Below the pieces are notes generated by a model that had not been told where the DNA came from, ran no database searches, and was given only the letters and a program-made list of their open reading frames with translations. From positions 4,361,001-4,425,000 of the forward strand of contig NZ_CP085081.1 of assembly GCF_023243115.1 (NCBI RefSeq): a stretch of 64,000 nt of DNA, read 5' to 3'. Made by a program: the position numbers and the translations under genes. This document shows positions 4,888 to 61,206 of this stretch, one piece after another. Within the stretch, counting starts at the first letter, position 1; each line of letters starts with the position of its first letter. The stretch comes from Sediminicoccus sp. KRV36 (GTDB lineage: Bacteria; Pseudomonadota; Alphaproteobacteria; Acetobacterales; Acetobacteraceae).

Positions 4888-5006
4888 GAGGGGCGCCGCC
4901 CCTCAAACTCCCTGGCAAGAACCTCAGGTTCTTGCATCTCCGAACACATCCGGGTGCAGGGAACCGGTTCCCTGCTGGGGGAGCACGAGGGGGCAAAGCC
5001 CCCTCG
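4888..5006. repeat. Structured intergenic repeat, inverted pair (copy A)
   Basis: Two copies of a two-hairpin element face each other. The plus-oriented copy has hairpin 1 at 4888-4904 (GAGGGGC/GCCCCTC), the linker AAACTCCCT, then hairpin 2 at 4915-4935 (arms GCAAGAACCT and AGGTTCTTGC). The minus-oriented copy has hairpin 2 at 4956-4975 (arms GCAGGGAACC and GGTTCCCTGC) and hairpin 1 at 4986-5006 (CGAGGGGGC/GCCCCCTCG). The element ends one base before the stop codon of the SDR gene and begins one base before the rlmJ start. It could act as terminator, mRNA stabiliser or protein-binding repeat. Confidence 0.8.
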
Positions 5007-5699
5007 TCACACGCGAAGTGTCGCGCCATGCGCAAATTCTTGCCCGAGCAGCGCCGCGATGGCGGCTCCCACCTCCGCCGGCTGGCGCAGCTTCGCCGGG
5101 TCCTCGCCCGGAAAGGCCGCGGCGCGGAGATTGGTGGCCACCGGCCCCGGATCCACCAGCGCCACGCGCAGCGGCGTCAGCCCGACCTCGGTCGCCCAGC
5201 ATTGCACCAGATGTGCCTGCGCCGCCTTGGCGGTGCTGTAGAGGCTCCAATAGGCGGTCGGCTCGGCTGCGTGCGAGTCGTGCAGGAAGATAGCCCGGCC
5301 GGCGGGGGCGGCGCGCAGCGGCGGGTCGCAGGCGCGGATCAGGCGATAGGCGGCGGTGGCGTTGACGGCCAGGCTTTCGCTCCAGTCACGCGGCGGGATA
5401 TGCGCGGCCGGCGTCAGCTTCGCCAGCAGCCCCGCCGCATGCACCAGGATATCCAGCCGTCCGAAGCGCTCGACGAGCGAGGGGCCGAGCATGTCCAGCT
5501 GATCCGCCGCCTTGATGAGGTCGAGCGGCAGGAGTGTCGCGCTGCCACCGCCCGCGCGGATCAGATCATCGGTCTCCTCAAGGCCTCCCTGGCTGCGCGC
5601 CGTGAGCACGACATGCACGCCGGCCGCTGCCAGGGCCAGGGCCGTGGCGCGCCCGATGCCGCGCGATGCCCCGGTGACAAGTGCAACCTGACCTTTCAC
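5007..5699 (-). CDS. Short-chain dehydrogenase/reductase family protein
   Basis: This 230-residue cytoplasmic oxidoreductase has the SDR cofactor motif TGASRGIG near residue 9, a DI-x-VHAAG segment, and the catalytic YSTAK near residue 163 with an upstream serine (HDSHAAEPTAYWS). The preference is probably NADP(H), and the substrate is unknown. The start is the GTG at 5697-5699, which overlaps the purF stop as GTGA, so translation is coupled to purF. The cvpA-purF-SDR order is commonly seen in alphaproteobacteria. Its stop codon abuts repeat copy A. Confidence 0.88.
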   Translation of the reverse strand: MKGQVALVTGASRGIGRATALALAAAGVHVVLTARSQGGLEETDDLIRAGGGSATLLPLDLIKAADQLDMLGPSLVERFGRLDILVHAAGLLAKLTPAAHIPPRDWSESLAVNATAAYRLIRACDPPLRAAPAGRAIFLHDSHAAEPTAYWSLYSTAKAAQAHLVQCWATEVGLTPLRVALVDPGPVATNLRAAAFPGEDPAKLRQPAEVGAAIAALLGQEFAHGATLRV

Positions 5700-7153
5700 G
5701 CGCCAGCCTTGAGCAGGCTGCCGCGCTGTTCGGCATTGTCCGTCCGGTCGGTCAGCGGGATGGCGTAGTCGCCGGTGAAGCAGGCGTCGCAATAGGCAGG
5801 GGCCGCCGGGTCGCGCCCCTGGCGACCCAGCGCGCGATAAAGGCCGTCAATCGAAATGAAGGCCAGGCTGTCCACGCCGATCAGCTTGGCCATGGCGACG
5901 AGGTCATGCTGGGCGGCCAGCAATTCGCTGCGCTCGGGCGTATCGATCCCGTAGAAGCAGGAATTGACGGTGGGCGGTGAGGAGATGCGCATATGCACCT
6001 CGGCCGCCCCGGCATGGCGCACCATTTCCACGATCTTCTTGGAGGTGGTGCCGCGGACGATGCTGTCATCCACCAGGATGACGCGCTTGCCCTCCAGCAT
6101 GGCGCGGTTGGCGCTGTGCTTGAGCTTCACGCCCAGATGGCGGATCTGGTCGGTCGGCTCGATGAAGGTGCGGCCGACATAATGGTTGCGGATGATGCCC
6201 AGCTCAAACGGAATGCCGGCCTGCACGGCATAGCCCATGGCGGCGGGCACGCCGCTATCGGGCACGGGCACCACCACATCGGCCTCGACATGGCTTTCGC
6301 GCGCGAGTTCGGCGCCGATGCGCTTGCGGGTCTCATAGACGGGCGTGCCCTCGACCACCGAGTCCGGCCGGGCGAAATAGATGTATTCGAAGATGCAGAA
6401 GCGGTTTTCCGCCTTGGGAAAGGGCTTCACCGAACGGATGCCGCTGTCATCGATGATGACGATCTCGCCCGGGTCAATGTCGCGCACGAATTCGGCGCTG
6501 ACGATATCCAGCGCGCAGGTCTCGCTGGCCAGCACCCAGCCATCATTCAGCCGGCCCAGCACCAGAGGGCGCACACCCAAGGGGTCGCGCGCGCCGATCA
6601 GCGCGCCATTGTGGAGTGCCACCAGGGAGTAGGCGCCTTGCACCTGCTTCAGCGCGTCAATCAGCCGGTCCAGCACGGTGGAATAGAGGCTGATGGCGAT
6701 GAGGTGGACAAAGACCTCGGAATCCGTGGTGGATTGGAACAGGCAGCCGCGCCGCACCAGGGCACGCTTCAGCACGCCGGCATTGGTGAGGTTGCCGTTA
6801 TGGCCGACGGCGAAGCCGCCGAACTCGAAATCGGCAAACAGCGGCTGCACATTGCGCAGCGCCGTCTCGCCCGTGGTGGCGTAGCGGTTATGGCCGATGG
6901 CGGCGCGGCCGGGCAGGCCGGACATCACCTTGGCATCGCCAAAGATATCGCCGACCAGGCCAAGGCCCTTGTGGGAATGGAACATCCCCGCATCATCGAG
7001 GGTGACGATGCCCGAAGCCTCCTGCCCGCGATGCTGCAAGGCATGCAGGCCCAGCGCCGTCAGTGCCGCCGCATCCTTGTGCCGCCAGATGCCGAAGACG
7101 CCGCATTCCTCGTGGAACTTGTCGTCATCATCGCCTTGGGGGGGAAGGGGCAT
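5696..7153 (-). CDS. purF: Amidophosphoribosyltransferase
   Basis: PurF transfers glutamine amide nitrogen to PRPP, the first committed step of purine synthesis. The 485-residue protein has a short N-terminal propeptide ending at HEE; cleavage would expose the catalytic cysteine of CGVFG (residue 17). The Ntn-amidotransferase domain continues with GHNRYATTG and the glutamine-pocket segment QSTTDSEV. The PRPP site is VILVDDSIVRGTT near residue 360. The ATG at 7151 has AAGG eight bases upstream. It lies 11 bp behind cvpA, the classic cvpA-purF pairing, and couples to the downstream SDR. Confidence 0.97.
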   Translation of the reverse strand: MPLPPQGDDDDKFHEECGVFGIWRHKDAAALTALGLHALQHRGQEASGIVTLDDAGMFHSHKGLGLVGDIFGDAKVMSGLPGRAAIGHNRYATTGETALRNVQPLFADFEFGGFAVGHNGNLTNAGVLKRALVRRGCLFQSTTDSEVFVHLIAISLYSTVLDRLIDALKQVQGAYSLVALHNGALIGARDPLGVRPLVLGRLNDGWVLASETCALDIVSAEFVRDIDPGEIVIIDDSGIRSVKPFPKAENRFCIFEYIYFARPDSVVEGTPVYETRKRIGAELARESHVEADVVVPVPDSGVPAAMGYAVQAGIPFELGIIRNHYVGRTFIEPTDQIRHLGVKLKHSANRAMLEGKRVILVDDSIVRGTTSKKIVEMVRHAGAAEVHMRISSPPTVNSCFYGIDTPERSELLAAQHDLVAMAKLIGVDSLAFISIDGLYRALGRQGRDPAAPAYCDACFTGDYAIPLTDRTDNAEQRGSLLKAGA

Positions 7154-7164
7154 GGCAGGGACCT

Positions 7165-7725: not shown

Positions 7726-8035
7726 GCTGCGCTGCCATGTAGCGGGGGCAGCGATTCGTGTCACCTGACCCACCTTGCGCCTGGGCCCTGCCTGGTTCGG
7801 CCACCACCTTCATGCTAATTCATAAAAAATAGGGCGGGGCTCGCTGGCTGCTGCAAAATCACCGCGACGGGATCGAGGGGCCAGCCCCTCGAGCTCCCCG
7901 GCAGGAAACCGGTTTCCTGCACCTTCATTCAGGGGATTTTACCGTCGAAGAGCCGAGATACCGGCCTTCTTGGCGTGGTTGGCCGCGAGGCGGAGACGAC
8001 GCGGGAGGGCAAGGCCCTCTCGCCATCTGACCTTT
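7726..8035. other. 310-bp intergenic region between radA and cvpA
   Basis: No gene is seen here. It holds repeat copy B (7874-7921), a T-rich run on the minus strand around 7821-7832 that could be part of a promoter or terminator, and a short imperfect hairpin near 8004-8020 (AGGGC/GCCCT). Confidence 0.6.
7874..7921 (+). repeat. Structured intergenic repeat (copy B)
   Basis: Hairpin 1 is CGAGGGGC/GCCCCTCG-like at 7874-7891. The linker AGCTCCCCG leads to hairpin 2 at 7901-7920, a perfect palindrome with arms GCAGGAAACC and GGTTTCCTGC. It matches the layout of copy A but with different arm sequences in hairpin 2. It lies downstream of radA and upstream of cvpA. Confidence 0.8.
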
Positions 8036-10010: not shown

Positions 10011-10108
10011 GGCAGGCTTCCCTGACCAGGTCGTCGCGCAGCCTACCCCCCCAGCGCGGCGGCAACCCGGCGGGACGTTCCCCCCCCTTTGGTCCCGCCG
10101 GGACCCCC

Positions 10109-11985: not shown

Positions 11986-14676
<2,691 letters not shown>

Positions 14677-35773: not shown

Positions 35774-35795
35774 TCCACGCCTGAACGACAAAGGG

Positions 35796-35827
35796 GGCGG
35801 CTTCCGTGCAGGAGGCCGCCTTTTTTT
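35796..35827 (+). terminator. Intrinsic terminator of metK
   Basis: A 10-bp stem (GGCGGCTTCC with GGAGGCCGCC, one G-T pair) is directly followed by seven T. This is the clearest rho-independent terminator in the window. Confidence 0.9.
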
Positions 35828-35840
35828 GTACCGATAGCTC

Positions 35841-35913
35841 GGGGCTCCGCCCCTTCGATCCAACCACAAGGGGCGGAGCCCCTTGGACCCCGGCAAAGGG
35901 CTCGCCCTTTGCA
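35841..35913 (+). repeat. Structured intergenic repeat (copy E)
   Basis: A GGGGCTCCGCCCC hairpin at 35841-35853 is mirrored by GGGGCGGAGCCCC at about 35870-35882, so the two can also pair with each other. The linker GGACCCCG and hairpin 2 at 35893-35912 (arms GCAAAGGGC and GCCCTTTGC) follow. It lies between the metK terminator and trmB and ends 21 bases before the trmB start. Confidence 0.8.
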
Positions 35914-35933
35914 ATCCATGCGCAAGGTCCCGG

Positions 35934-48692: not shown

Positions 48693-48697
48693 GCATC

Positions 48698-48743
48698 AAG
48701 GGGCTCTGCCCCTTGGACACCGGCAAAGGCCTAGGCCTTTGCA
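48698..48743 (+). repeat. Structured intergenic repeat (copy F)
   Basis: Hairpin 1 AAGGGGC/GCCCCTT-like at 48698-48714, the linker GGACACCG, then hairpin 2 at 48723-48742, a perfect palindrome with arms GCAAAGGCCT and AGGCCTTTGC. It fills the gap between two convergent genes (SMP-30 protein and pgk), so a bidirectional terminator role fits. Confidence 0.82.
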
Positions 48744-48747
48744 ATCC

Positions 48748-49935
48748 TCAACCAAGCGCCGCCACGCCGGGCAGTTCCTTGCCTTCCAGCCACTCCAGGA
48801 AGGCACCGCCGGCGGAGGAGACATAGCTCATCCGCTCGGACACGCCGGCATGGCGCAGTGCGGAGACCGTGTCGCCACCGCCACCCACCGAGCGCAACTG
48901 CCCCGCCTCGGTGAGGCGCGCGACCTCGTGAGCCACCGCCACCGTAGCCGCATCAAACGGCGCGATCTCGAAGGCGCCAAACGGCCCGTTCCACACCAGC
49001 GTCTTCGCCGTCGAAAGCCGCTTCACAACATCGGCCACCGTGGCAGGCCCGACATCCAGCGCCATCATATCCGCCGGCACGCCATCCAGCCCCACCACGC
49101 GGTTGGGCGAATGCGCGGCAAAGCCCTCGGCCACCACCAGGTCCAGCGGAAGGACGATCTCACAGCCACGCGCCTTGGCGCCGGCCAGGATCTCGCGCGC
49201 CGTCTCATGCATCTCGGCCTCCTGGAGCGACTTGCCAACGGCATGCCCCTGCGCGGCCAGGAAGGTATTGGCCATGGCGCCGCCAATCACCAGCACATCC
49301 ACCTTGGAGGACAGGTTGCCCAGCAAATCAAGCTTGGTGGACACCTTCGCCCCACCCACGATGGCGACGACCGGCCGCTGCGGATTGCCGAGTGCGGCAT
49401 CCAGCGCTTCCAACTCCTGCTGCATCAGCCGGCCGGCATAGGCCGGCAGCAACCGTGCCACGCCCTCGGTGCTGGAATGCGCGCGATGCGCGGCGGAGAA
49501 GGCGTCATTCACAAACACGTCCGCAAGCTTGGCGAGGCCCGCGGCAAGGCCAGCGTCGTTCTTCTCCTCGCCCGCGTGGTAGCGGGTGTTTTCCAGCAGC
49601 AGCACCTCGCCATCCTTGAGCGCGGCTGCGGCGGCCTCGGCATCGGCGCCGATGCAGTCATCGGTGAAGGCGACCGGCTTGCCGAGCGAGGCGGAGAGGG
49701 CCGCCTGCATCGGCTTCAGCGACATTTCCGGCACGCGCTTGCCCTTCGGTCGGTCGAAATGCGAGCAGACGATCACCCGCGCGCCCTTGGCGCAGAGTTC
49801 CGCGATGGTGGGGCAGAGGCGCTCGATGCGCGTCATGTCCGTGATCTTGCCGTCCTTCACTGGGAGGTTCAGGTCGGCACGCAGCAGCACGCGCAAGCCG
49901 CGCGGATCCAGGTCATCAAGGGTGCGGAAGGCCAT
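48748..49935 (-). CDS. pgk: Phosphoglycerate kinase
   Basis: Pgk interconverts 1,3-bisphosphoglycerate and 3-phosphoglycerate. The 395-residue protein has the substrate block [18 protein letters not shown] near residue 15, [17 protein letters not shown] near 57, and the nucleotide loop GGGDTVSAL near 370. It is third in the minus-strand run tkt-gap-pgk, which serves glycolysis and the pentose phosphate pathway. A stable hairpin lies in the 58-bp gap after gap. Confidence 0.97.
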
Positions 49936-49961
49936 CAGGATCTCTCACTTGCGGCAGGGGT

Positions 49962-49984
49962 CTGGGGAGACACTGTCTCCCCAG
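49962..49984 (-). repeat. Stable hairpin between gap and pgk
   Basis: CTGGGGAGAC and GTCTCCCCAG pair as a 10-bp stem with a three-base loop, followed on the minus strand by ACCCC. There is no T-run, so an mRNA stabilising or processing element is more likely than a terminator. The CTGGGG...CCCCAG-ACCCC layout matches the half-hairpins at 27.1 kb. Confidence 0.6.
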
Positions 49985-49993
49985 TTTCTTGAC

Positions 49994-51016
49994 TTAAAGC
50001 TTGCCGTAATACGCGGCCGTATCCGACATGCGGTTCGAGAAGCCCCACTCATTGTCATACCAGGACATCACGCGCACCAACCCGCCATCCACCACCTGCG
50101 TCTGCGTCGCATCAAAGGTGGACGAATGCGGGTCATGGTTGAAGTCGATCGAGACCAGCGGCGCCGTGTTGTAGCCCAGGATGCCCTTCAGCGGCCCGCT
50201 TTCGGAAGCGGCCTTCATCACGGCGTTGATCGCCTCCTTCGTCAGGCCCTCGGTCTTGGCCGGCACGAAGTCGAGCGAGACGAGTGAGACATTCGGCGTC
50301 GGGATACGGATCGCGGTGCCGTCCAGCTTGCCCTTCAGTTCCGGCATGACGAGGCCCACCGCCTTGGCCGCACCCGTCGAGGTCGGAATGGCGGAGACGG
50401 CGGCGGCGCGGGCGCGGTGCAGGTCCTTGTGCAGCGTGTCCACCGTGTTCTGGTCACCGGTATAAGCGTGGATGGTGACCATATAGCCGCGCAGGATGCC
50501 GAAATTGTCGTGCAGAACCTTGGCGATGGGCGCCAGGCAGTTGGTGGTGCAGGAGGCGTTGGAGACGATCTTGTCCTCGGCCGTCAGCGTCTCATGGTTC
50601 ACGCCGTAGACGATGGTCTTGTCGGCGCCCTCGCCGGGGGCGGAGATCAGCACCTTGCGAGCCCCGGTGCCGAGCAGCAGCGAGGCCTTGTCGCGCGCGG
50701 TGAAAATGCCGGTGCATTCGGCGGCAATGTCGACGCCATCCCATTTCAGCTTGGCGGGGTCGCGCTCGGCCGTCACCTTGATCGGGCCCCAGGTCTTGCC
50801 GTGGGCCTTGATGGTGATGCTGTCGCCGTTGACGATGACCTCGCCGGGGAAGCGGCCATGGACGCTGTCGAAGCGGAACAGGTGCGCATTCGCATCGACC
50901 GAGCCGAGGTCGTTGATGGCCACGAATTCCACATCATCCCGCGCGCTCTCGCAGGCGGCGCGCAGCACGAGGCGGCCGATGCGCCCGAAGCCGTTGATGG
51001 CAATCTTCACCGTCAT
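49994..51016 (-). CDS. gap: Glyceraldehyde-3-phosphate dehydrogenase
   Basis: The 340-residue type I enzyme has the NAD fold [14 protein letters not shown] at the start and the catalytic cysteine in [12 protein letters not shown] near residue 153. The closing [12 protein letters not shown] is typical. Asp in INDLGSVD suggests NAD preference, though this is uncertain. It lies 11 bp after tkt and 58 bp before pgk. Confidence 0.98.
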
Positions 51017-51027
51017 GTTCTTGGTCC

Positions 51028-52965
51028 TTATCCCAGAAGCTTCTTGGCCGTCGCGACAATGGCGGGGGCCGTGATCCCGAAATGCTCGAAGAGTTTCTCG
51101 GCCGGCGCCGAGGCGCCGAAGCCGTTCATGCCGACAAAGGCGTTCGTCCAGCGCTCCCAGCCGAAGCCGATCCCGGCCTCGATGCCGATGCGCGGCGCGG
51201 TGCCCAGCACGGCCGCGCGGTAGTCCTCATCCTGCTGGGCAAACAGCTCCCAGCTGGGGAAGGAGACAACGGCGGCCTGGATGCCCTGCTCGGCCAGGGT
51301 GGCGCGCGCGGCGATGGCCAACTGCACTTCGCTGCCGGTGGCGATGAGCGTCACGTCGCGCGCGCCCTCCGCCTCCGCCAGCACATAGGCGCCGCGGGCG
51401 GAGCGGTTTTCGCCGGCATCCTCGCGCAGCGCCGGCAGCGCCTGGCGCGAAAGGGCAAGCACCGAGGGGCCTTCCGTGCGCCGCAGCGCGAGTTCCCAGC
51501 ACTCGGCCGTTTCCATCGCGTCGGCAGGGCGGAAGACGGCAAGGTTGGGGATGGCGCGCAGCGAGGCGACGGTCTCGACCGGCTGGTGCGTCGGCCCATC
51601 CTCGCCGAGGCCGATGCTGTCATGCGTCAGCACATGGATGACGCGCTGATGCATCAGCGCGGCCAGGCGGAGTGCGGGCCGCAGGTAGTCGGCGAAGATC
51701 AGGAAGGTGCCGGAATAGGGGATGATGCCGCCATGCAGCGCCATGCCGTTCATGGCGGCGGCCATGCCATGCTCGCGCACGCCCCAATGCACGTAGCGGC
51801 CGTTGAAGTTGCCCGGCCCGACGGCGGGCACGCCCTTCACATCGGTGTTGTTGGAGCCGGTGAGGTCGGCACTGCCGCCCACCATTTCGGGCACCGCCGG
51901 CACCAGGGCGCCAAGCGCGCGCTGGCTGGCGATGCGGCTGCCGATCTTGGGCTTCTCGGTCGCGAAGGTGGCGCGGAGCGCGTTCAGCGCTTCGTTCCAG
52001 TTCTCCGGCAGCTTGCCGGCCATGGCGCGCTCGAAATCCACGCGCATCGGGTGCTTGGCCAGGCGCTTCAGCCAGGAGCGGCGCGTGCCGGCCGAGCGGC
52101 GGCCCGCCTCTTCCCAGCGGGCCTTTAGCCCGTCCGGGATGGTGAAGGCTTCCTCGTTCCAGCCCATCGCCGATTTCGCGCCGGCGATCTCGTCCGCACC
52201 CAGCGGCGCGCCATGGCTGCCCGCCGTGCCGGCCTTCTTCGGCGCCGCGAAGCCGATGATGGTGCGGCAGGCGATGATGGTGGGCTTCTTGCTGCGCTGC
52301 GCCACGGCCATGGCGGCGGCCAGCTGCGCGTGGTCATGCCCATCCACCCGCTTCACCGCCCAGCCATAGGCCTGGTAGCGCTTCAGCACATCCTCGCTGA
52401 AGGAGAGCGCGGTGTCGCCGTCAATGGAGATGTGGTTGTCGTCCCAGAGGACGGTCAGCTTCTCCAGCCCCAGATGCCCGGCCAGCGCCGCGGCCTCATG
52501 GCTGATGCCCTCCTGCAGATCACCATCTGAGCAGATCACCCAGGTGCGATGATCCACCAGCGATTTGCCAAAGCGCGCGGCCAGCATGCGCTCGGCCATG
52601 GCCATGCCGACGGCGGTGGAAATGCCCTGGCCGAGCGGGCCGGTGGTCATTTCGATGGCTGGGTGCTCGCCATATTCCGGGTGGCCGGCGGCGGCGGAAT
52701 GAAGCTGCCGGAAGGTCTTGAGCACCTCCATTTCCATGCCCGCATGGCCGGTCAGGTGCAGCAGGCTGTAAAGCAGCATGGAACCATGCCCGGCCGAGAG
52801 CACGAAACGGTCCCGATCCGGCCAGCGCGGGTCGGCCGCGTCATATTTCAGGAAGCGGGTGAAGAGCACGGTCGCTGCATCGGCCATGCCCATGGGCATG
52901 CCGGGATGACCGGATTTGGCCTTTTCCACCGCATCCATGGCGAGGACACGGATGCAATCCGCCAT
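51028..52965 (-). CDS. tkt: Transketolase
   Basis: The 645-residue thiamine-diphosphate enzyme moves two-carbon units between sugar phosphates. Visible blocks are [14 protein letters not shown] near residue 16, the ThDP motif [15 protein letters not shown] near 146 ending with [10 protein letters not shown], and [17 protein letters not shown] near 453. I chose ATG 52965 because GGAGGA stands six bases upstream and it matches the family N-terminus; a longer frame opens with TTG at 53058. It is first gene of tkt-gap-pgk. Confidence 0.96.
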
Positions 52966-53125
52966 CCGTCGCTCCTCCGTCACGGGAAGTGCCAGGATCG
53001 CAGCCTGGGCGGCGAGAGCGAGGTTCGGGGAGTTGCTGGGGGAGTCGAGACTGGCCAAGGTTCACGGTGCCCTTACGTTGCGCGCGGCTATAGAGCGCGG
53101 TGCGAGGGGGGGCAAGTTTGCGCCC

Positions 53126-55357
53126 TCACAAAAACCCCACCGGGTCCACATCCACCTGCACCCTGACCTCGCGCGGCAGGGTCGCCCGGGCCAGCCAATC
53201 CGCCAGCACCGCCTGCACCCGCACGCCACGCGCCGCCTTGAGCAGCAGGCGGTGGCGATAGCGCCCGCGCAGCAGGGCCAGCGGCGCCGGTGCCGGCCCC
53301 AGCACCTGCAGGCCCGGCCCGACCGGCGCCGCCAGCCCCATTTCCCGCGCCCCCCGCTCGGCCGCGCGGGCATCCTCCGAGCTGATGATCAGCGCCGCGA
53401 GCCGGCCATAGGGTGGCCAATGGCCGGGTTCGCGCTGCGCCGCCTCGGCCTTGAGAAAGCCCGGGAAATCATCCCGGATCAGCGCCTGCATCACCGGATG
53501 CTCGGGCGAGAAGCTTTGCAGCAGCACGCGGCCAGGCTTGTCCTCGCGCCCTGCCCGGCCGGCCACCTGGTGCAGCAGCTGCATGGTCCGCTCGCCCGCC
53601 CGCAGGTCGCCGCCGCCCAGGCCAAGATCGGCATCCACCACGCCAACCAGCGTGAGATGCGGGAAATGCCAGCCCTTGGCGACGATCTGCGTGCCGATGA
53701 TCAGATCCACCTCCCGCGCCTCGATCTGGCGGGCCGCCTCGGCCGCGGCGGCGGGGCCGGGGATGGTGTCGCTCGCCATCACCAGGCGCCGGGCCTCGGG
53801 GAACAGCTCGGCCACCTCCTCCTGGATGCGTTCCACGCCGGGGCCGATGGGCACCAGCGAATGCTCCACGCCACATTCGGGGCAGGCGGGGGGTGTAGGC
53901 GCCGTATGGCCGCAATGGTGGCAGAGCAGCCGGCGCTGGGCGCGATGCTCGACCAGCCAGGCGGTGCAGTTCGGGCATTGCATCCGGTGCCCGCAGGCCC
54001 GGCACAGCGTGAGGGGCGCATAGCCGCGGCGGTTGAGGAACAGCATGGCCTGCTCCCCCCGGGCCAGGGTTTCCGTCATGGCCGTGACCAGCGGGGGGGC
54101 GAGGAACCGACCACGCTCCGGAGGGTGCTGGCGCAGGTCGATCGCCTCGATCAGCGGCATGGCCGCCCCGCCATGCCGGACCGGCAGCCCCAGGCGGCGG
54201 TAGCGCCCGGCCTCGGCATTGGTGACGCTCTCCAGGCTGGGCGTGGCACTCACCAGCACGCAGGTCGCACCTTCCAGCCGGGCGCGCACCACGGCCATGT
54301 CCCGCGCGTGGTAGATCACGCCCTCCTCCTGCTTGAAGGCGGTCTCATGCTCCTCATCCACCACGATCAGGCTGAGATCGGGGAAGGGCAGGAACAGGGC
54401 CGAACGCGCGCCGACCAGCACGGGGGCGGTGCCTTCGGCCACGGCGCGCCAGGTCACGCGGCGGGTGCGGGGCGAAAGCTCGGAATGCCAGAGCGCCGGC
54501 GGGGCGCCGAAGCGGCGCTCGAAGCGCGCAAGCCATTGGGTGGAAAGCGCGATTTCCGGCAGCAGCACCAGCGCCTGGCGGCCCTGCCGCAACGTCTCGG
54601 CGATCGCGTCGAGATAGACCTCCGTCTTGCCCGAGCCGGTGACGCCTTCCAGCAAGGTCACGCCGAAGCCCCGCGACTCGACCGCTTCGCGCAGGGCCGC
54701 GGCGGCGCTGGATTGCTCCGGCCGCAGATCGGGCGGGGCGAAATCCGGCAGGGGGCGCGGAAAGGCGGCTGCGCGCGGCATCAGGCGGGGCGCGATCAGC
54801 CCGGCCGAGGCGAGGCCCCGCACCACGCCCATCGAAACCCCCGCCAGCCGGGCGATTTCCACCCCGGGCAAGGTGAGGCCACCCAACGCCTCCAGCGCCC
54901 TGGCGCGATCCGGCGTGATGCGCCCCTCGGCCCCTGCCACGCGCTGCCAGCCCGTGGCGGCGGCCGGCTCCTCCAGCGCGGCGGGCGCGCTCATCGCCAT
55001 GCGCAGCACCGCGCCAGGGGGAGAGAGCGTATAGGCCGCAACCCAATCCACCAGCCGGCGCAGGGGCGCGCCCATCGGGGGTGCGGGCTTGATGGCGATC
55101 ACGGCGCGCAGGCGGCCCTCGGCCACATGTTCCTGGTCCGGCGCATCATCCCACACCACGCCGAGCGAGGTCCGTCCGCCCAGTGGCACTTCCACGAAGC
55201 TGCCCGGCCCGGCCACCAGCTCCGGCGGCAGGCGGTAGTCATAGGCACCCTCCAGCGGGAGCGGCAGCAGAACGCGAAGACGGCGCCCCGCACGTTCCGG
55301 CGCGACCTCTCGGGCCTCGGACTTTTGGGCCCCGGCCTTTCGGGAAGGTGTCGCCAT
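53126..55357 (-). CDS. priA: Primosomal protein N' (PriA helicase)
   Basis: PriA restarts stalled replication forks. The 743-residue protein has an N-terminal DNA-binding domain with [12 protein letters not shown], Walker [16 protein letters not shown] near residue 235, DEEH near 338, and an eight-cysteine zinc region ([13 protein letters not shown], then CHHC and CPEC) near 450-490. The length is normal. It is divergent from fsa, sharing a 76-bp gap, and lies 93 bp or more from tkt. Confidence 0.97.
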
Positions 55358-55433
55358 GGGCTATTCCCTTCGCGACGGGGCGGCCGATGGTCAATCCCCG
55401 ACCTCCGATTCGCCGCTCGCTCAAGGATAACTC

Positions 55434-56090
55434 GTGATGAAATTCTTTGTGGATACTGCCGATGTCGCCGAAATCCGTTCCCTTATCGGCACGGGCTTCA
55501 TGGATGGCGTCACCACCAATCCCAGCCTGATCGCCAAGTCCGGCCGCAAGATGAGCGAGGTCATCGCCGAGATCTGCGCGCTGACCGAGGGTCCCGTCTC
55601 GGCCGAGGTGACGGCCACGGATCACGAGACGATGCTGAAGGAGGGCCGCTATCTGCGTGGCATCGCCAAGAATGTGGCGGTGAAGGTGCCGCTGACGGAA
55701 GCCGGGCTGCGCACCTGCAAGGTGCTCTCCGATGAGGGCACGCCGGTCAATGTCACGCTTTGCTTCTCGGCCAACCAGGCCTTGCTGGCGGCCAAGGCGG
55801 GGGCGGCCTTCATCTCTCCCTTCGTCGGCCGGCTGGATGATATCGGCCAGGATGGCATGGGGCTGATCGCCGATGTGGTGCAGATCTACAAGAACTACAG
55901 CTTCAGGACGGAGGTGCTGGTCGCCTCGATCCGCCATCCCATCCATGTGCTGCAATCGGCCAAGCTGGGGGCCCATGTCGGCACCATGCCGCCGGCGGTG
56001 ATCCGCAGCCTGCTGAAGCACCCGCTGACCGATCGTGGCCTGGAGGCCTTCCTGGCCGATTGGGCGAAGACTGGGCAAAGCATCCTGTGA
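55434..56090 (+). CDS. fsa: Transaldolase-like protein (fructose-6-phosphate aldolase/TalC type)
   Basis: The 218-residue TIM-barrel protein is the short transaldolase subfamily: [29 protein letters not shown] near residue 25, and the Schiff-base lysine in [10 protein letters not shown] near 85. Short TalC-type proteins may act as true transaldolases or as fructose-6-phosphate aldolases; sequence alone does not decide. The ATG at 55434 (second M at 55437) fits the family. Its TGA overlaps the GTG of the DUF484 gene. Confidence 0.93.
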
Positions 56091-56638
56091 GCGCGGCCCC
56101 GCCCGAGGCGGCGGCCGTGGAGGCATTCCTCCAGGCCCATCCGGATTTCCTCGCGGCGCGGCCGCAGCTCTACGCCATCCTGACCCCGCCCCGCCGCATC
56201 CATGGCGAGGCGGTGGCCGATCACATGGACGCCATGATCCAGGCCGGCCGCCAGGAATGGCGCGGGCTGCTCGAAGCGGGGCGCACCCGCGGCGCCTTCG
56301 CCGCCAAAGTGGCCGAGGCGGTGCTGGCCCTGATCGCCAGCAAGGACGCCGAAGATTGCCTGCGCCATGAATGGCCCGCCCATCTCGGGCTGGAATCCTG
56401 CCGCCTGGTGCCCCACGCGGCGGGCCCCTTACCCGGCCTGGGCCTGATCGTGCGCGATGTGGCCGTGGCCAGCACGGCGCTGCATGGCGAGCAGGCGCCC
56501 CTCATCACGCGTGAGGCGTTGCTGCGCGCGGGGGAGTACACGCTGGCGCTGGGCGCGCGTGACGCGGCAGACCTGCCCAATGAGCCGGAATCCCTGGCCT
56601 TCCTCGCGCGTGCGCTCGCCGCCGCCATGGCGCGATGA
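56087..56638 (+). CDS. DUF484 family protein
   Basis: The 183-residue protein has the DUF484 N-terminus [19 protein letters not shown] and [17 protein letters not shown], followed by a GAF-like domain. Its function is unknown; it is often encoded beside xerC, as in enterobacteria. It starts at GTG 56087 overlapping the fsa stop (GTGA), and ends overlapping the xerC ATG (ATGA), so three genes are coupled. Confidence 0.9.
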
Positions 56639-57558
56639 CGGGCGAGGCCGCCCGCACCGAATTCCTCACCTGGCTCGCCACGGAGCGGCGCGCCAGCCCG
56701 CATACGCTGGAAGCCTATGGGCGCGATATCGCTGACCTGCTGGGCTTCCTGACGCGGCATCTGGGTGCCGAGCCCGACCTCGCCGCACTCGGCGCCATGC
56801 GCCCGGCGGATTTGCGCGGCTTCCTCGCCACCCGCGCCAAGGCGGGTGCGGGCAATGCCACGCGCGCCCGGCAATTGGCCGCCATCCGCAGCTTTCTGCG
56901 CTTCCTCGCCCGGCGGCATGGCATCGCGCCCCTGGCCATCGCCGGCATGCGCGGACCCAAGCGCGTGCAGCCCGTGCCACGCGCGCTGAACCGCGCCGAT
57001 GCGCGGGCCGCAGGGACGGAGATCGGCGATGTGCACCACCCGGAGCGGCCGGAATTCCAGGCGGCCCGCGATGTGGCGCTGTTCACCCTGCTTTATGGCT
57101 GCGGGCTGCGCATCAGTGAGGCGCTGGGGCTTTCCATCGCAGACGCGCCCTTGCCGGGCAGTGATGCGGCCCTTCGCATCCTCGGCAAGGGCGGCAAGCA
57201 GCGGATGGTGCCGGTGCTGCCGGTGGTGCGCCAGGCCATTGCCGCCTGGATGGTGCATCGCGCCGGCGCCGAGCCTGATGCGCCGCTCTTTTTGGGGGCG
57301 CGCGGCAAGCGGCTGGACCCGGCGGTGGCGCAGCGGACCCTGCGGGATTACCGCCGCCTCGCCGGGCTGCCGGAACACGCCACCCCCCACGCCCTGCGGC
57401 ATTCCTTCGCCACGCATCTGCTCGCCGGCGGCGCCGATCTGCGCGCCATCCAGGAGTTGCTGGGCCATGCCAGCCTGTCCACCACGCAGCGCTATATCGC
57501 CGTGGATGCGGAGGGCCTGCTCGCCACCTGGCGCATGGCGCATCCGCGCGCCGATTGA
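56635..57558 (+). CDS. xerC: Tyrosine recombinase XerC
   Basis: XerC with XerD resolves chromosome dimers at dif. The 307-residue protein has an N-terminal SAM-like core-binding domain and the catalytic residues in order: Arg in CGLRISEAL near 161, Lys in GKGGKQRMVP near 186, HALRHSFATHLL near 250, the late His of LGHASLSTTQRY near 274, and the Tyr nucleophile. The DUF484 neighbour supports XerC rather than XerD or an integrase. Confidence 0.93.
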   Translation: MTGEAARTEFLTWLATERRASPHTLEAYGRDIADLLGFLTRHLGAEPDLAALGAMRPADLRGFLATRAKAGAGNATRARQLAAIRSFLRFLARRHGIAPLAIAGMRGPKRVQPVPRALNRADARAAGTEIGDVHHPERPEFQAARDVALFTLLYGCGLRISEALGLSIADAPLPGSDAALRILGKGGKQRMVPVLPVVRQAIAAWMVHRAGAEPDAPLFLGARGKRLDPAVAQRTLRDYRRLAGLPEHATPHALRHSFATHLLAGGADLRAIQELLGHASLSTTQRYIAVDAEGLLATWRMAHPRAD

Positions 57559-57660
57559 CCGGCGGGCCCGCACAGCCCCATTTTAGCGCATCATTCTTCG
57601 AGGGCCCGCCATGCATTCCCTTCCGGCTGCCAGCACGGCACCCCGCATGCGTGGCCACGC

Positions 57661-58173
57661 ATGACCGAGGCCGCACATCCACAGGGGCTGAAGGCGCGGC
57701 TGCTGCATGAGCTGCGGGAATATGGCAGCATCTTCCTCTACCTCTACATTTCCTTCGCGGTGGTGATCTTCTACCGGGATGCGGTGCTGCGCGCCGAGGG
57801 CATTGCCCTGGCCTCCTTTGGCTTCGCCTTCGTGAAGGCGCTGGTGCTGGCGAAGTTCATGGTGCTGGGCCAGGCCGCCCGCATCGGCGAGCGGCGGCGC
57901 GGGCGTTTGCTGTTCGGCGTCGTGTTGTGGCGCACCTCGTTGTTCCTGCTGCTGCTGGTGGGGCTGAGCATGATCGAGGAGGTGGTGGTCGGCCTGTTTC
58001 ACGGGCGCGGCGCACTCGCTTCCATCCAGGAAATGGGCGGCGGCAATCTGCGGGAAATGCTGGCCACGGCGCTGCTCCTCTGGGTGATCCTGCTGCCCTA
58101 TTTCGTGCTGCGCGTGATCGGCGAAGTGTTGGGCAAGGGCGAGCTCTGGCGGATATTTTTCGCGCGGCGGTGA
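57661..58173 (+). CDS. Conserved membrane protein, 170 aa, unknown function
   Basis: No family was recognised. The protein has four hydrophobic segments: FLYLYISFAVVIFYRDAV near residue 25, a second near 55, LLFGVVLWRTSLFLLLLVG near 85, and LLLWVILLPYFVLRVIG near 140. It ends with a basic tail. It is 103 bp after xerC on the same strand. ATG 57661 is the only reasonable start in frame; no strong ribosome-binding site is visible. Confidence 0.75.
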   Translation: MTEAAHPQGLKARLLHELREYGSIFLYLYISFAVVIFYRDAVLRAEGIALASFGFAFVKALVLAKFMVLGQAARIGERRRGRLLFGVVLWRTSLFLLLLVGLSMIEEVVVGLFHGRGALASIQEMGGGNLREMLATALLLWVILLPYFVLRVIGEVLGKGELWRIFFARR

Positions 58174-58221
58174 GGGTTGAGGCGGCGCGGTCCGCTGCGG
58201 GTGGGAGCCTTTGGCCGCAGC

Positions 58222-58306
58222 CGTTTCACAGAAAGCCAAGACGGTGAAACGCCGCCTGGCTTTTGCTTTCACGCATTGTCCAGTGCGCCGTGCGAAGCCG
58301 CACGGC
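58222..58306. terminator. Two hairpins between convergent membrane-protein and amidase genes
   Basis: CGTTTCAC (58222-58229) pairs with GTGAAACG (58244-58251), and GCCGTGCG (58287-58294) pairs with CGCACGGC (58299-58306). They are placed so that each could terminate one of the two convergent genes. Confidence 0.5.
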
Positions 58307-58317
58307 TTGGAAATGCG

Positions 58318-59553
58318 CTAGCGATTGGCCCGCGCCACCACCGCCTCGAACAGCACCTGGCAGCCGGCTTCGGCTTCCTCCGGCAGGATGCTCTCCGCCT
58401 CGTTGTGGCTGAGGCCATCCTTGCAGGGGGTGAAGATCATCGCCGTCGGCACGCGCCGTGCCACATAGACGGCGTCATGCCCGGCGCCGGAAATGATCTC
58501 ACGCGCCGGATAGCCGAGCCGCGCGGCGGCCTGGCGCACCAGATCCACGCAGGCCGGATCAAAGGGCTGGGCCGGGATGTCGAACAGCTTCGTCAGCTCC
58601 AGGCGGCAACCATTTTGCGCCACCAGCGCCGCGGCGGCGGCCGGGAAGCTCGCCATCAGCGCCTGGACCTCAGCATCCAGCGGGTGGCGGAATTCGATGC
58701 TGAAGCGCACCTCGCCCGGCACCACATTGCGGCTGTTCGGCAGCACCTGAAGCTGGCCGATGGTGCCGCGCCCCTCCTCACCGCGCGCGCGCATCAGATC
58801 ATCCACCAGGGCGATCACGCGCGCCGCCGCCACCAGCGCATCGCGCCGCGCGGAGGGGGGCGTGGTGCCGGCATGGGCGTCCTGGCCGATGATCACCGCG
58901 TCGTACCAGACCTGGCCCTGGGCACCGGTGACGATGCCGATCTGCTTGCCCTCGCGCTCCAGGATCGGGCCTTGCTCGATATGCAACTCGAAATAGGCAT
59001 CGGCCGGAAAAGGCGCGGCGGGGTGCGGGCCCTTGTAGCCGATGGAATCCAGCGCGGTGCCGACATCCACGCCCTCGGTGTCGGTGAAGCCATAGGCCTC
59101 CTCCAGCCCGAAAATCCCGGCCCAGACGCCGCTGCCCATCAGCGAGTGGCCGAAGCGGCTGCCTTCCTCATCCGTCCAGTTCACCAATTCGACCGGCGCT
59201 TCGGTGGTGATGTTGAGGTCGTTCAGCGAGCGCATGACTTCGAGGCCGGCGATCACGCCCAGGGCACCGTCGAATTTGCCGCCCGTGGGCTGGCTGTCCA
59301 GGTGGCTGCCGAACAGCACCGGCAGGCGCTTCGCGTCCCGCCCTTCGCGGCGAGCGAACATGTTGCCCATGGCGTCCACGCGCATGGTCAGGCCCAACTC
59401 GTCGCACCATTGGGTGAAGCGCTGGCGGCCGGCCTTGTCCACCTCGGTGAGGGTCAGGCGCTTCACGCCGCCCTTGGGTGTCGCGCCGATTTCGGCCATG
59501 GCCATGAGGGTGTCCCACAGGCGTGGGCCATTGATCTTCTGATTTGTGCTCAT
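58318..59553 (-). CDS. Zn-dependent M20 hydantoinase/carbamoylase family amidase
   Basis: The 411-residue protein matches the N-carbamoyl-L-amino-acid hydrolase/beta-ureidopropionase/allantoate amidohydrolase group. Metal ligands are visible in FGSHLDSQPTGGKFDG near residue 80 and in WTDEEGSRFGHSLMGSGVW near 125 and SGAGHDAVYVA near 378. It removes a carbamoyl group or hydrolyses a related amide; which is unclear. The start ATG 59553 lies four bases after the stop of the binding-protein gene, so they are co-transcribed. It could cooperate with the hyuAB genes 11 kb away. Confidence 0.9.
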   Translation of the reverse strand: MSTNQKINGPRLWDTLMAMAEIGATPKGGVKRLTLTEVDKAGRQRFTQWCDELGLTMRVDAMGNMFARREGRDAKRLPVLFGSHLDSQPTGGKFDGALGVIAGLEVMRSLNDLNITTEAPVELVNWTDEEGSRFGHSLMGSGVWAGIFGLEEAYGFTDTEGVDVGTALDSIGYKGPHPAAPFPADAYFELHIEQGPILEREGKQIGIVTGAQGQVWYDAVIIGQDAHAGTTPPSARRDALVAAARVIALVDDLMRARGEEGRGTIGQLQVLPNSRNVVPGEVRFSIEFRHPLDAEVQALMASFPAAAAALVAQNGCRLELTKLFDIPAQPFDPACVDLVRQAAARLGYPAREIISGAGHDAVYVARRVPTAMIFTPCKDGLSHNEAESILPEEAEAGCQVLFEAVVARANR

Positions 59554-59557
59554 GGCG

Positions 59558-60298
59558 TCACAATACCTGGAAACCCACCGCCCTGAACATGGCCGCCCCT
59601 TCGCCGCCGGCGAAGCCGATGAAGGCCCGCGCGCCTTCAGGGTCCGCCGCGCGGGCCGCCACCGCCGCGACATAGGGGGTGATCAGTTGCGCGCTCTCCG
59701 GCAGGGGGGCCACCAGCACGGCCCCGGGCTCGGCCAGGATTTCGCTGGCCTGGGTGATGACCAGCCCCACCTCGCCGCGCGCCACCGCCTGCACGGCGGC
59801 GAGGCCACGCGCGAAGGGAATGCGCGGGGCGGTGCTGCCCAGCCGGTCCAGCAATGCGGCCACATGCCGCCCGCTGGTCGCCCCCGCCGCGCCGTCGCTG
59901 AGCCCGATGCTGGATGCCGCACGCAGGATGGCCGCAAGCTCCGCCTCATCGCGCATCTGCGGCACCGGCAGCCCTCGCCGGATGGCGAGAGCGAGGCGCA
60001 TCCGCCCCATCTCCCGCCGCGAATCCGCCAGCGCGAACCCATCGCGGATCAGCGCATCCAGCGCGGGGGCGGCGTTCAGCACCACATCCACCGCTTCCCC
60101 CGCGCGCAGCCGCGCCGCCACCTGGCCGCCATTGCCGGTCTCGGTGCGGATGGCGCGGCCGGTGCGCGCCGTCAGCGCATGGGCAATCCGCTCGATCGGC
60201 GTCTCGGTGGCGCCGGTGCCCAGCACGAAGAGCGGCGGCCGGGGTTGCGCCAAGGCGGGTGTGGCGAGGAGGAGGGGGAGGGTGCGGCGAAACATCAT
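59558..60298 (-). CDS. Periplasmic ModA-like substrate-binding protein
   Basis: A 246-residue receptor with a Sec signal (MMFRRTLPLLLATPALAQP, cleavage near AQP). The mature part resembles molybdate/PBP2-type binding proteins: GNGGQVAARLRAGEAVDVVLN near residue 55 and GLSDGAAGATSGRHVAALLD near 135. No transporter genes are adjacent, and the ligand may well not be molybdate. The operon with the amidase suggests an organic ligand; this is inference. Confidence 0.75.
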   Translation of the reverse strand: MMFRRTLPLLLATPALAQPRPPLFVLGTGATETPIERIAHALTARTGRAIRTETGNGGQVAARLRAGEAVDVVLNAAPALDALIRDGFALADSRREMGRMRLALAIRRGLPVPQMRDEAELAAILRAASSIGLSDGAAGATSGRHVAALLDRLGSTAPRIPFARGLAAVQAVARGEVGLVITQASEILAEPGAVLVAPLPESAQLITPYVAAVAARAADPEGARAFIGFAGGEGAAMFRAVGFQVL

Positions 60299-60343
60299 CC
60301 GCGCAGCCTTGCCCCAAGTGCCGGGGACTGCAACTGATAGGAA

Positions 60344-61126
60344 ATGGCCCATGCTCTCGACACCGCCCCCGCCCTGCTCCGCAATTCCGAACTCGACCGC
60401 GCCGAGGTGCGCCAGGCGCGGGTGGACCTCGCCGCCTGCTTCCGCATGGCGGCGAAGCTCGGCCTGCAGGAGGGGATCTGCAATCACTTCTCCTTCGTGG
60501 TGCCCGGCCGCGATGACCTGATGCTGGTGAACCCCTATGGCCATGCCTTTGCCGAAGTGACCGCCTCCAACCTCGTCATCTGCGATTTCGAGGGGCGGGT
60601 GGTGGCTGGCAGCGGCGTGCCGGAAGCGACGGCCTTCTACATCCATGCGCGCCTGCATCTGAAGCATCCGCGCGCCAAGGCCGCCTTCCACACCCATATG
60701 CCCAACGCCACCGCCCTCTCGATGCTGGAGGGGCCACCGCTGGTCTGGGCAGGGCAGACGGCGCTGAAATTCTACGGCCGCACCCTGGTGGATGAGGATT
60801 ACAACGGCCTCGCCCTGGATGAGCGCGAGGGCGACCGCATCGCCGCGGCCCTGGGCGATGCGGATATCGTCTTCATGAAAAATCACGGCGTGATGGTCGT
60901 CGGCCCCAGCATCGCCGAAGCCTGGGATGACCTTTACTACCTGGAGCGCGCGGCCGAGGTGCAGCGCCTGGCGATGGCGACGGGGCGCGTGCTGAAGCCC
61001 GTGCCGGAAGCCGTGGCCCGCGCCACCTATGAGCAGATGCGCGAGGGCGACCGGGAGAGTGCGCGGCTGCATCTGGAGAGCATCAAGCGGCAGCTCATGA
61101 AGGAGCAGCCTGACTTTGCGGATTGA
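60344..61126 (+). CDS. Class II aldolase/adducin family protein
   Basis: The 260-residue protein has the aldolase II fold: GICNHFSFVVPGRDDLMLVNPYG near residue 45 (split by its turn) with the zinc-binding pair in AAFHTHMPNATAL near 125 and KNHGVMVVG near 180. The substrate is unknown; members are sugar-phosphate aldolases or decarboxylases. It is divergent from the amidase operon across 45 bp. Its stop codon lies inside repeat copy G. Confidence 0.87.
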   Translation: MAHALDTAPALLRNSELDRAEVRQARVDLAACFRMAAKLGLQEGICNHFSFVVPGRDDLMLVNPYGHAFAEVTASNLVICDFEGRVVAGSGVPEATAFYIHARLHLKHPRAKAAFHTHMPNATALSMLEGPPLVWAGQTALKFYGRTLVDEDYNGLALDEREGDRIAAALGDADIVFMKNHGVMVVGPSIAEAWDDLYYLERAAEVQRLAMATGRVLKPVPEAVARATYEQMREGDRESARLHLESIKRQLMKEQPDFAD

Positions 61127-61206
61127 GGGGCGCTGCCCCTCAAACTCCCCGGCAAGAACCTCAGCTTCTTGCATCTCCGAGCAAGGCGAACCCGGGGAAG
61201 GTGTTC
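61125..61206 (+). repeat. Structured intergenic repeat (copy G), with decayed inverted second half
   Basis: Hairpin 1 GAGGGGC/GCCCCTC at 61125-61141 overlaps the TGA of the aldolase gene. The linker AAACTCCCCG and hairpin 2 at 61152-61172 (GCAAGAA/TTCTTGC plus an imperfect interior) are close to copy A. Downstream GGGGAA/TTCCC remnants at about 61194-61208 correspond to the inverted half of copy A. It lies between convergent genes. Confidence 0.75.

What the first reader, a model, noticed from the sequence alone, without database searches (positions are those of the whole stretch)
4888..61206. A family of two-hairpin intergenic repeats with covarying stems
Copies at 4888-5006, 7874-7921, 35841-35913, 48698-48743 and 61125-61206 share one plan: a GGGG/CCCC hairpin, a linker close to (G/A)nACCCCGG, then a hairpin framed by GCA...TGC. 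The arms of hairpin 2 differ: GCAAGAACCT, GCAGGGAACC, GCAGGAAACC, GCAAAGGGC, GCAAAGGCCT. Yet each has its exact complement on the other side (copy G has one mismatch). Such compensatory change argues for selection on structure, in RNA or as cruciform DNA. All copies lie next to a stop codon of at least one gene. REP/BIME elements are known in other bacteria; I cannot say whether this one has been described.
Basis: partly seen in the sequence, partly recalled or inferred. Interest (0 to 1): 0.72.

Follow-up and report, generated by a model that had tools for sequence, protein, structure and literature searches.

The report
Triple-helix repeats between bacterial genes
A bacterium related to Roseococcus carries well over a hundred short two-hairpin repeats between its genes, and the letters after each hairpin change in step with the hairpin just as they should if each hairpin folds into a three-stranded DNA helix, which suggests that evolution maintains a DNA triple helix in living cells.

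Summary
The five copies are real. They belong to a family of at least 148 half-units at 120 places in this 4.91-Mb Acetobacteraceae genome, with clear stem covariation. Copy 4888-5006 is two units in inverted orientation, as are all 28 close pairs. No RAYT domain was found in the genome; 116 of 120 places lie 3' of a gene. Tract lengths match in 116 of 121 transcribed rows from 13 genomes. Where A:T interrupts the stem, 111 of 144 transcribed rows mirror it exactly, with A or T at the key letter in 107; direct order occurs in 0 of 99. C:G- or T:A-interrupted stems are at background. This is the code of a class I purine-motif intrastrand triplex (G.GC, A.AT, T.AT) on the G-rich strand. Hairpin 2 and its tail follow the rule more weakly. 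Nearest known relative: the E. coli BoxC/PIT/TM element, of another strand order (class II). Triplex formation is inferred, not shown.

The parts
4881..4947 (+). half-unit A: hairpin 1 (4886-4906), mirror linker (4907-4914, one decayed letter), hairpin 2 (4915-4935), tail 2 (4936-4942)
   Evidence: R1 score 70.1 bits
4944..5012 (-). inverted partner half-unit: hairpin 2 (4956-4975), linker (4976-4984), hairpin 1 with 5-G/5-C tracts (4985-5007) and a 5-C mirror linker; outer arm reaches the stop codon of the SDR gene
   Evidence: R1 score 60.2 bits
7868..7932 (+). half-unit of subtype B: hairpin 1 (7873-7892), mirror linker CTCCCC (7893-7900), hairpin 2 (7901-7920), tail 2
   Evidence: R1 score 71.3 bits
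7933..8023 (-). decayed inverted partner of subtype E (hairpin GAGAGGGC..GCCCTCTC type) between radA and cvpA
   Evidence: read by eye by comparison with better kept B/E pairs; not found by model R1
35841..35853 (+). extra GGGGCTCCGCCCC hairpin, perhaps a remnant of another unit
35861..35924 (+). half-unit of subtype C: hairpin 1 (35867-35885), linker GACCCCG (35886-35892), hairpin 2 (35893-35912), tail AATCC (35913-35917), between metK and trmB
   Evidence: R1 score 51.1 bits
48691..48754 (+). half-unit of subtype C: hairpin 1 (48697-48715), linker with one changed letter (48716-48722), hairpin 2 (48723-48742), tail AATCC (48743-48747), between an SGL-family gene and pgk (convergent)
   Evidence: R1 score 56.6 bits
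61118..61184 (+). half-unit A: hairpin 1 (61123-61143) containing the stop codon TGA of the upstream gene, mirror linker ACTCCCCG (61144-61151), hairpin 2 with one mismatch (61152-61172), tail ATCTCCG (61173-61179)
   Evidence: R1 score 73.8 bits
61185..61210 (-). decayed inverted partner of the preceding half-unit
   Evidence: read by eye; not found by model R1

Best explanation
Each half-unit is two tandem modules of 'hairpin plus mirror-image 3' tail'. On the complementary, G-rich strand each module reads third strand - purine arm - loop - pyrimidine arm, that is, a class I purine-motif intrastrand triple helix with G.GC triads and A.AT or T.AT at A:T pairs. Two half-units in inverted orientation make a full element. 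SHOWN: the sequence rule, its covariation across copies and genera, the dependence on the 3' arm rather than the 5' arm, the scarcity of pyrimidine interruptions in hairpin 1, the 3'-of-gene placement, and gain or loss between close relatives at the three sites compared. INFERRED: that the triplex forms, on DNA (the purine motif is reported not to form in RNA), when the G-rich strand is single-stranded or strongly negatively supercoiled, for example on the replication fork template or behind transcribing polymerases. Most likely effect, inferred (about 0.3 on its own): a transient polymerase pause and supercoiling sink at gene ends, which also makes the site prone to gain, loss and rearrangement. 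The copying machinery is unknown; no RAYT domain was found in this genome.
For: (1) C-tract of the hairpin 1 3' arm equals the C-tract of the linker (3/3, 4/4, 5/5, 6/6): 116 of 121 transcribed rows from 13 genomes against 44.7 by shuffling; distinct strings 57 of 62 against 21.0. Own genome 60 of 66 distinct against 26.3 (maximum of 5000 shuffles 39), other genera 32 of 36 against 12.8 (max 23). Hairpin-like sites for which no hairpin 2 was parsed: 30 of 64, and 9 of 43 outside the 3/3 class; elements in the same loci 45 of 49 (by eye that control still contains some interrupted or unparsed elements). (2) For stems interrupted by A:T (GGAGGG/CCCTCC) I expected linkers C^n-W-CCC: 111 of 144 transcribed rows exact, n = 2 to 5, middle letter A 58, T 49, G 4; direct-repeat order 0 of 99 rows with n not 3, mirror order 75 of 99; distinct strings 44 of 76 against 15.9 (max 27). 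(3) Written down beforehand: stems interrupted by C:G or T:A should be rare. A:T type in 71 of 397 genomes; C:G type in 23 of 397 (29 hits, none with a C^n-x-CCC linker by eye, fewer than the 41 hits of the reversed-pattern control as I add them up); T:A type in 2 of 397, one hit each. (4) When the arms disagree in tract length the linker follows the 3' arm in 17 and the 5' arm in 3 of 21 distinct strings: class I predicts the 3' arm, class III the 5' arm. (5) Hairpin 2 and its tail follow the same rule: own genome 41 of 59 against 18.3 (max 30), other genera 26 of 45 against 13.3 (max 24); the tail follows the 3' arm in 5 and the 5' arm in 1 of 8 disagreements. (6) G.T is not commoner than A.C among stem mismatches (10 against 18; 44 distinct hairpin 1 and 64 hairpin 2 stems of the host), so nothing points to a transcript of this strand. 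(7) Triad code, and stability of a related motif in vitro: Holder et al. 2015, PMC4666352 (sections and passages).
Against: No measurement of triplex formation exists for these sequences. For the related E. coli motif, in vivo DMS footprinting and duplex CD/NMR did not show a stable triplex, and no promoter or terminator activity was reported (PMC4666352). Copies share ancestry, so shuffles overstate independence. A:T interruptions need transitions while C:G and T:A need transversions, so mutation bias explains part of the contrast in (3), although transversion changes do occur elsewhere in the stems and W = A is itself a transversion. A.C on this strand is G.T on the other, so 18 against 10 does not exclude an RNA of the other strand. 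33 of 144 rows do not fit exactly; by eye about half of these look like chance hits in coding sequence. The small genus set is not significant (tails 12 of 13, shuffle maximum 12; linkers 13 of 14, shuffle maximum 13). Hairpin 2 tails fit less well than linkers. The triads per module are few (about 4 to 9, by eye). Listings were cut by the tool, so the rows are those it chose to show. No function was measured.
Confidence: 0.66

Rival explanations
1. Ordinary REP/BIME-like hairpins acting in RNA as bidirectional transcription terminators or mRNA 3' stabilisers; the linker is just conserved sequence.
For: 3'-of-gene placement (116 of 120 clusters), enrichment in convergent gaps (47:69 convergent:tandem against 18:67 in control gaps, p 0.004), compensatory stems.
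Against: No T-tract: 0 of 137 parsed half-units after hairpin 2 and 3 of 148 on the other side have 5 or more T in 8. No clear orientation preference of single half-units in tandem gaps (28 against 24). Element-bearing and element-free gene ends do not differ in canonical terminators found by my scan (5 of 163 against 2 of 103). metK carries its own T-tract terminator in front of the copy (by eye). Does not explain the mirror rule or the lack of C:G-interrupted stems.
Confidence: 0.15
2. The linker is an alternative Watson-Crick partner of the G-rich 5' arm (a two-state RNA or DNA switch), which would keep tract lengths equal.
For: Equal G and C tract lengths.
Against: Interrupted stems keep the mirror, not the direct order (75 against 0 of 99); antiparallel pairing with the 5' arm needs direct order. 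The linker follows the 3' arm, not the 5' arm it would pair with (17 against 3 of 21).
Confidence: 0.04
3. [quoted passage not shown]
For: The same duplex carries both classes; T in the linker opposite A:T fits.
Against: A is as frequent as T at that letter (58 against 49) and A.AT is not among the triads given for the pyrimidine motif. The linker should follow the 5' arm but follows the 3' arm. It needs protonated C (general knowledge; the paper calls it more stable in acid).
Confidence: 0.06
4. RAYT-mobilised REPs or REPINs; structure is kept because a tyrosine transposase recognises it as single-stranded DNA.
For: Dispersed, inverted pairs, gained and lost between relatives, a nested-insert subtype at 14 of 120 places.
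Against: No Y1_Tnp domain in this genome (the control finds E. coli). In the family 24 of 200 genomes have one while 96 of 200 have the compact repeat (same request, so presumably the same genomes), and copy-rich genomes such as G187, G162, G222, G100 and G070 are not among the 24, though G119 and G077, also copy-rich, have weak matches. No GTAG or CGTC tag. Another transposase in trans is not excluded.
Confidence: 0.07
5. Founder effect: mirror tails arose once and were copied without function.
For: Copies within a genome are related.
Against: Several tract lengths with both A and T occur, matched, within single genomes (e.g. G147: n = 2, 3, 4, 5), and the rule holds in 26 of the 30 genomes listed. 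No mutational process that I know of makes or corrects mirror repeats.
Confidence: 0.08

Closest known systems
BoxC / PIT / TM_ECO intrastrand triplex motifs of enterobacteria (Holder et al. 2015, PMC4666352; first found by others cited there)
   Same: Intergenic, dispersed, G/C-rich three-tract purine-motif triplex code, no strand bias, occurs as inverted pairs of two types, linked there to variable loci, copy number differs strongly between relatives.
   Different: TM_ECO is class II (pyrimidine, purine, third strand); these are class I (third strand, purine, pyrimidine). Each half here has two hairpin modules. Placement is 3' of genes, whereas TM_ECO is more often upstream. The TM_ECO consensus has no exact match in the 279 loci held or in the window. 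Here covariation of the third strand can be shown.
REP / BIME / REPIN elements with RAYT transposases (GTAG type)
   Same: Many extragenic palindromic copies, inverted pairs, mosaic subtypes.
   Different: No RAYT domain in the genome, no GTAG tag, two hairpins per unit, mirror tails.
CGTC-tagged REPs of alphaproteobacteria (PMC3733652)
   Same: Alphaproteobacterial palindromic repeats without a dedicated transposase; REPs there are predominantly downstream of coding regions.
   Different: No CGTC tag; that paper states that CGTC repeats are missing from Acetobacteraceae (passages).
Intrinsic transcription terminators
   Same: GC-rich hairpins close to stop codons.
   Different: No T-tract, no clear orientation, and PIT motifs were reported without terminator activity.

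Membership tests
Intrastrand triplex motifs (as defined in PMC4666352) | Three tracts on one strand obeying a triad code (purine motif: G.GC, A.AT, T.AT) with short loops | tested here: met
Intrastrand triplex motifs (as defined in PMC4666352) | Physically forms a triplex (CD, NMR, chemical probing) | not testable with these tools
   needs oligonucleotides
TM_ECO / BoxC / PIT | Class II order with consensus CCCTCNCCC-N3-6-GGGNGAGGG-N3-GGGNGAGGG | tested here: not met
   0 exact matches in 279 loci and in window plus own stretches; tract order is class I
TM_ECO / BoxC / PIT | Intergenic, inverted pairs, no strand bias | tested here: met
   28 of 28 pairs within 250 bp inverted with hairpin 1 outermost; contexts (1 of 120 overlaps a called gene)
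REP/BIME with RAYT | Many extragenic palindromic copies, some in alternating orientation | tested here: met
REP/BIME with RAYT | REP-associated Y1 (HUH) transposase in the genome | tested here: not met
   (PF01797 absent at E 0.001; control positive in E. coli)
REP/BIME with RAYT | GTAG (or CGTC) tetranucleotide beside the hairpin | tested here: not met
   consensus of 31 half-units
Intrinsic terminator | T-tract directly after the stem | tested here: not met
   0 of 137 and 3 of 148
Rfam family | Match at gathering score | tested here: not met
   only a tRNA in the window
Transposon-like insertion (MITE) | Target-site duplication at filled against empty sites | tested here: inconclusive
   two filled sites with empty counterparts: no clear duplication by eye; about 12 bases next to rlmJ replaced

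The most novel reading that the evidence does not exclude
Acetobacteraceae genomes carry, in some species hundreds of, intergenic elements made of tandem class I DNA triple-helix modules whose third strand coevolves with the hairpin. This would be comparative evidence, of the kind used to establish RNA helices, that selection maintains a DNA triple helix inside living cells, with a DNA-level (not RNA-level) role at gene ends.
Probability: 0.55. Interest if true: 0.9.

Novelty: new variant of a known kind. Interest (0 to 1): 0.77.

Why it matters
Whether intrastrand DNA triplexes mean anything in bacteria has stayed open: the E. coli motif folds in vitro but stable folding was not seen in vivo (PMC4666352). 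Third-strand covariation is an independent line of evidence that does not need in vivo footprinting, and it suggests clean single and double changes (tail only, arm only, both) for a test. It may also explain what a large class of alphaproteobacterial repeats, for which I found no name in my searches, has in common, and gives a rule for finding and annotating them.

Tried and rejected
RAYT-driven REP: not supported for this genome. Rfam: nothing but a tRNA in the window. Terminator reading: no T-tract, no clear orientation bias, no relation to canonical terminators; a consensus scan of 48000-62000 found no more terminator-like sites than shuffles and none at the two copies there. G.U strand asymmetry as a sign of RNA function: none for this strand. 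Antiparallel switch: contradicted by interrupted stems. G-quadruplex as the general cause: uninterrupted modules have only two G-tracts on that strand, and equality also holds at n = 2. Model R1 on the 80 named purF loci gave only 15 hits, and a first mechanical two-hairpin scan of them gave 18 against 6 in a Markov control. Replication-strand bias: GC skew from the fetched stretches did not fix origin and terminus, so no conclusion. Outside the family: R1 hits 1 of 24 genomes, and another pattern (not run on the family as a whole) hits 8 of 285 genomes with one or two hits each, so I treat the family as mainly Acetobacteraceae at this sensitivity. Literature: searches listed no description of triplex-type or named repeats in Acetobacteraceae; a 2008 survey of stem-loop families (PMC2267715, passages) had no hit for the Acetobacteraceae names I tried. 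Subscription journals are largely not held.

Limits: gene contexts come from my own codon-usage gene caller, spot-checked with Pfam. The nine control stretches L161-L169 were picked by me after seeing the hit list and hold no half-unit. Subtype letters A-E are mine.
Full report
WHAT WAS CHECKED. The five copies were read directly. 31 half-copies were aligned, pairs counted and a covariance model R1 built. R1 finds 148 half-units in the host genome (4.91 Mb, one contig; window = 4361001-4425000). The search scored only 150 candidates, so the number is a floor. They form 120 clusters: 55 single '+', 37 single '-', and 28 pairs, all 28 with hairpin 1 at both outer ends and hairpin 2 inside. 4888-5006 is such a pair, not one long copy.

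WHO AND WHERE. PurF of the window is 97% and 95% identical to those of an Acetobacteraceae MAG and of Roseococcus sp. SDR, and 92% to a Rubritepida MAG. R1 matches 33 of 60 genomes: 32 of 36 of the same family (host included) and 1 of 24 outside it, weakly. A compact form (AAGG..GGGCnCTGCCC..CCCGC) is in 96 of 200 genomes and 56 of 102 genera of the family, with up to 585 pattern hits in one genome, alternative readings of one place included. A different pattern of the same kind is in 8 of 285 genomes elsewhere in the class, one or two hits each. Nothing in Rfam matches the window copies.

GENE CONTEXT. With a codon-usage gene caller trained on the window and nine control stretches (spot-checked with Pfam), 69 clusters are in tandem gaps, 47 in convergent, 3 in divergent, and 1 overlaps a called gene. 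Control gaps of 60 bp or more without an element: 67 tandem, 18 convergent, 23 divergent. Divergent gaps are avoided (p 6e-6) and convergent ones enriched over tandem (p 0.004). Single half-units in tandem gaps point with the genes 28 times and against them 24 times. The median distance to the nearest stop codon is 23.5 bp (116 clusters).

MOBILITY. The radA-cvpA gap of the host holds a B/E element. The unaligned gap is about 30 bp in L170 and shorter still in L180 (Roseococcus sp. SDR). The SDR-rlmJ gap (the 4888-5006 pair) is an empty site in L180, with about 12 bases next to the rlmJ start replaced in the host and no clear target duplication; L170 also lacks the element there but has an unrelated gap of similar length. 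Conversely L180 has an element beside a gene where the host has none. A 23-bp palindrome nested in hairpin 2 is shared by 14 of 120 clusters, as expected if one altered copy spread. The host has no Y1 transposase domain, and 24 of 200 family genomes have one.

THE MIRROR RULE. Reading the copies showed that what follows hairpin 1 is a mirror image of its 3' arm: CCCCTC-AAA-CTCCCC, CCCTCTC-GCG-CTCTCCC, CCCCCC-GAG-CCCCCC. Tract lengths of the 3' arm and linker agree in 116 of 121 transcribed rows (13 genomes), against 44.7 by shuffling; distinct strings 57 of 62 against 21.0. They agree in 60 of 66 distinct strings of the host (null 26.3) and 32 of 36 of other genera (null 12.8), while the 14 strings of the genus loci are too uniform to tell (13 of 14, shuffle maximum 13). 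Similar hairpins for which no hairpin 2 was parsed agree in 30 of 64, and in 9 of 43 outside the commonest 3/3 class; by eye this control still holds some true elements.

A DIRECTED TEST. If the third tract reads the stem by Hoogsteen rules, a stem interrupted by A:T (GGAGGG/CCCTCC) must be followed by C^n-W-CCC with W = A or T. In 397 family genomes the pattern was found in 71. Of 144 transcribed places from the tool's (cut) listing, 111 obey exactly with n = 2, 3, 4 or 5; the middle letter is A in 58, T in 49, G in 4. The direct order occurs in 0 of 99 places with n not 3, the mirror order in 75. A second prediction, noted beforehand, was that stems interrupted by pyrimidines on the purine strand should be rare. 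C:G-interrupted stems gave 29 hits in 23 genomes, none with a mirror linker by eye and fewer than the 41 of the reversed-pattern control (my addition); T:A-interrupted stems gave 2 hits. Mutation bias (transition against transversion) accounts for part of this, but not for W = A being as common as W = T.

WHICH STRAND AND WHICH MOLECULE. When the two arms differ in tract length, the linker follows the 3' arm in 17 and the 5' arm in 3 of 21 distinct strings; for hairpin 2 and its tail 5 against 1 of 8. In a class I purine-motif triplex on the complementary, G-rich strand, the third strand touches the purine strand, which is the complement of the 3' arm. In the class III alternative on the C-rich strand it would touch the 5' arm. 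Classes and triads are as given in PMC4666352 (passages), which also states that purine-motif triplexes do not form in RNA. G.T mismatches are not commoner than A.C in the stems (10 against 18), so nothing points to selection on a transcript of this strand; an RNA of the other strand is not excluded by this count.

HAIRPIN 2. Its tail obeys the same rule: CCTTT-GG-AAACC, CCCC-TGCA-CCCC, CCCTCCTT-GG-ATCCTCCC. Tract equality is 41 of 59 distinct in the host (null 18.3, max 30), 26 of 45 in other genera (null 13.3, max 24), and 12 of 13 in the genus loci (null 6.2, max 12, not significant). The fit is weaker than for hairpin 1. A half-unit is therefore best seen as two tandem modules, a full element as four.

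MECHANISM. Best supported: a DNA-level structural element. When the G-rich strand is exposed it can fold into class I triplex hairpins. The likeliest consequence, inferred from a probable polymerase stop reported for the E. coli motif (PMC4666352, passages), is transient pausing at gene ends and local instability. Direct function was not tested. Terminator activity is unlikely from the sequence and was reported absent for the E. coli motif.

LITERATURE AND NOVELTY. Holder et al. 2015 (abstract, sections 15, 16 and 18, part 1 of section 20, and passages read) describe class II TM_ECO (BoxC, PIT) elements in 262 proteobacterial genomes, sometimes in inverted pairs, linked to instability; of the Rhodospirillales names that I searched for in it, only Rhodospirillum photometricum occurs. 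PMC3733652 (passages) says CGTC REPs are missing in Acetobacteraceae. My searches listed no report of this family or of third-strand covariation. I file it as a new variant of a known kind.

Noticed in passing
14 of 120 host clusters, e.g. genome 1118780-1118940 (L098): A 23-bp palindrome (GTGAAAACC..GGTTTTCAC) sits inside hairpin 2, in 13 of the 14 clusters together with a subtype B hairpin 1, replacing part of the 5' arm where read; it was not found in the window or the nine control stretches.
   Followed up: partly
genome 3472580 (L133), 4536605 (L153) and other subtype B singles: Many 'single' B units have a decayed E partner with an extra ~20-bp insert (TTGGCCGCAAAGCGGAGACAA-like) before its hairpin 1, perhaps the older, longer form (by eye).
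   Followed up: no
window 4886 and 61124-61126: Elements abut or contain gene signals: the rlmJ start codon directly follows a hairpin arm, and the stop codon of the gene at 60344-61126 lies inside one.
   Followed up: partly
L263 and L277 (other genera): A hairpin of hairpin-1 type with an 8-letter mirror tail stands in the hairpin 2 position, as if modules were interchangeable.
   Followed up: no
genome-wide, single half-units: Singles are 55 '+' and 37 '-' and look unevenly spread (many between 0.4 and 1.7 Mb); origin and terminus could not be placed from the stretches held.
   Followed up: partly
genome 3878955-3879105 (L139): A pair lies directly downstream of the likely dnaA gene (3879097-3880515, minus strand; identified by me from its C-terminal sequence, not by a search).
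   Followed up: no
window 35790-35830: A canonical T-tract terminator (by eye) follows metK in front of the repeat copy, so that gene does not seem to need the repeat for termination.
   Followed up: no
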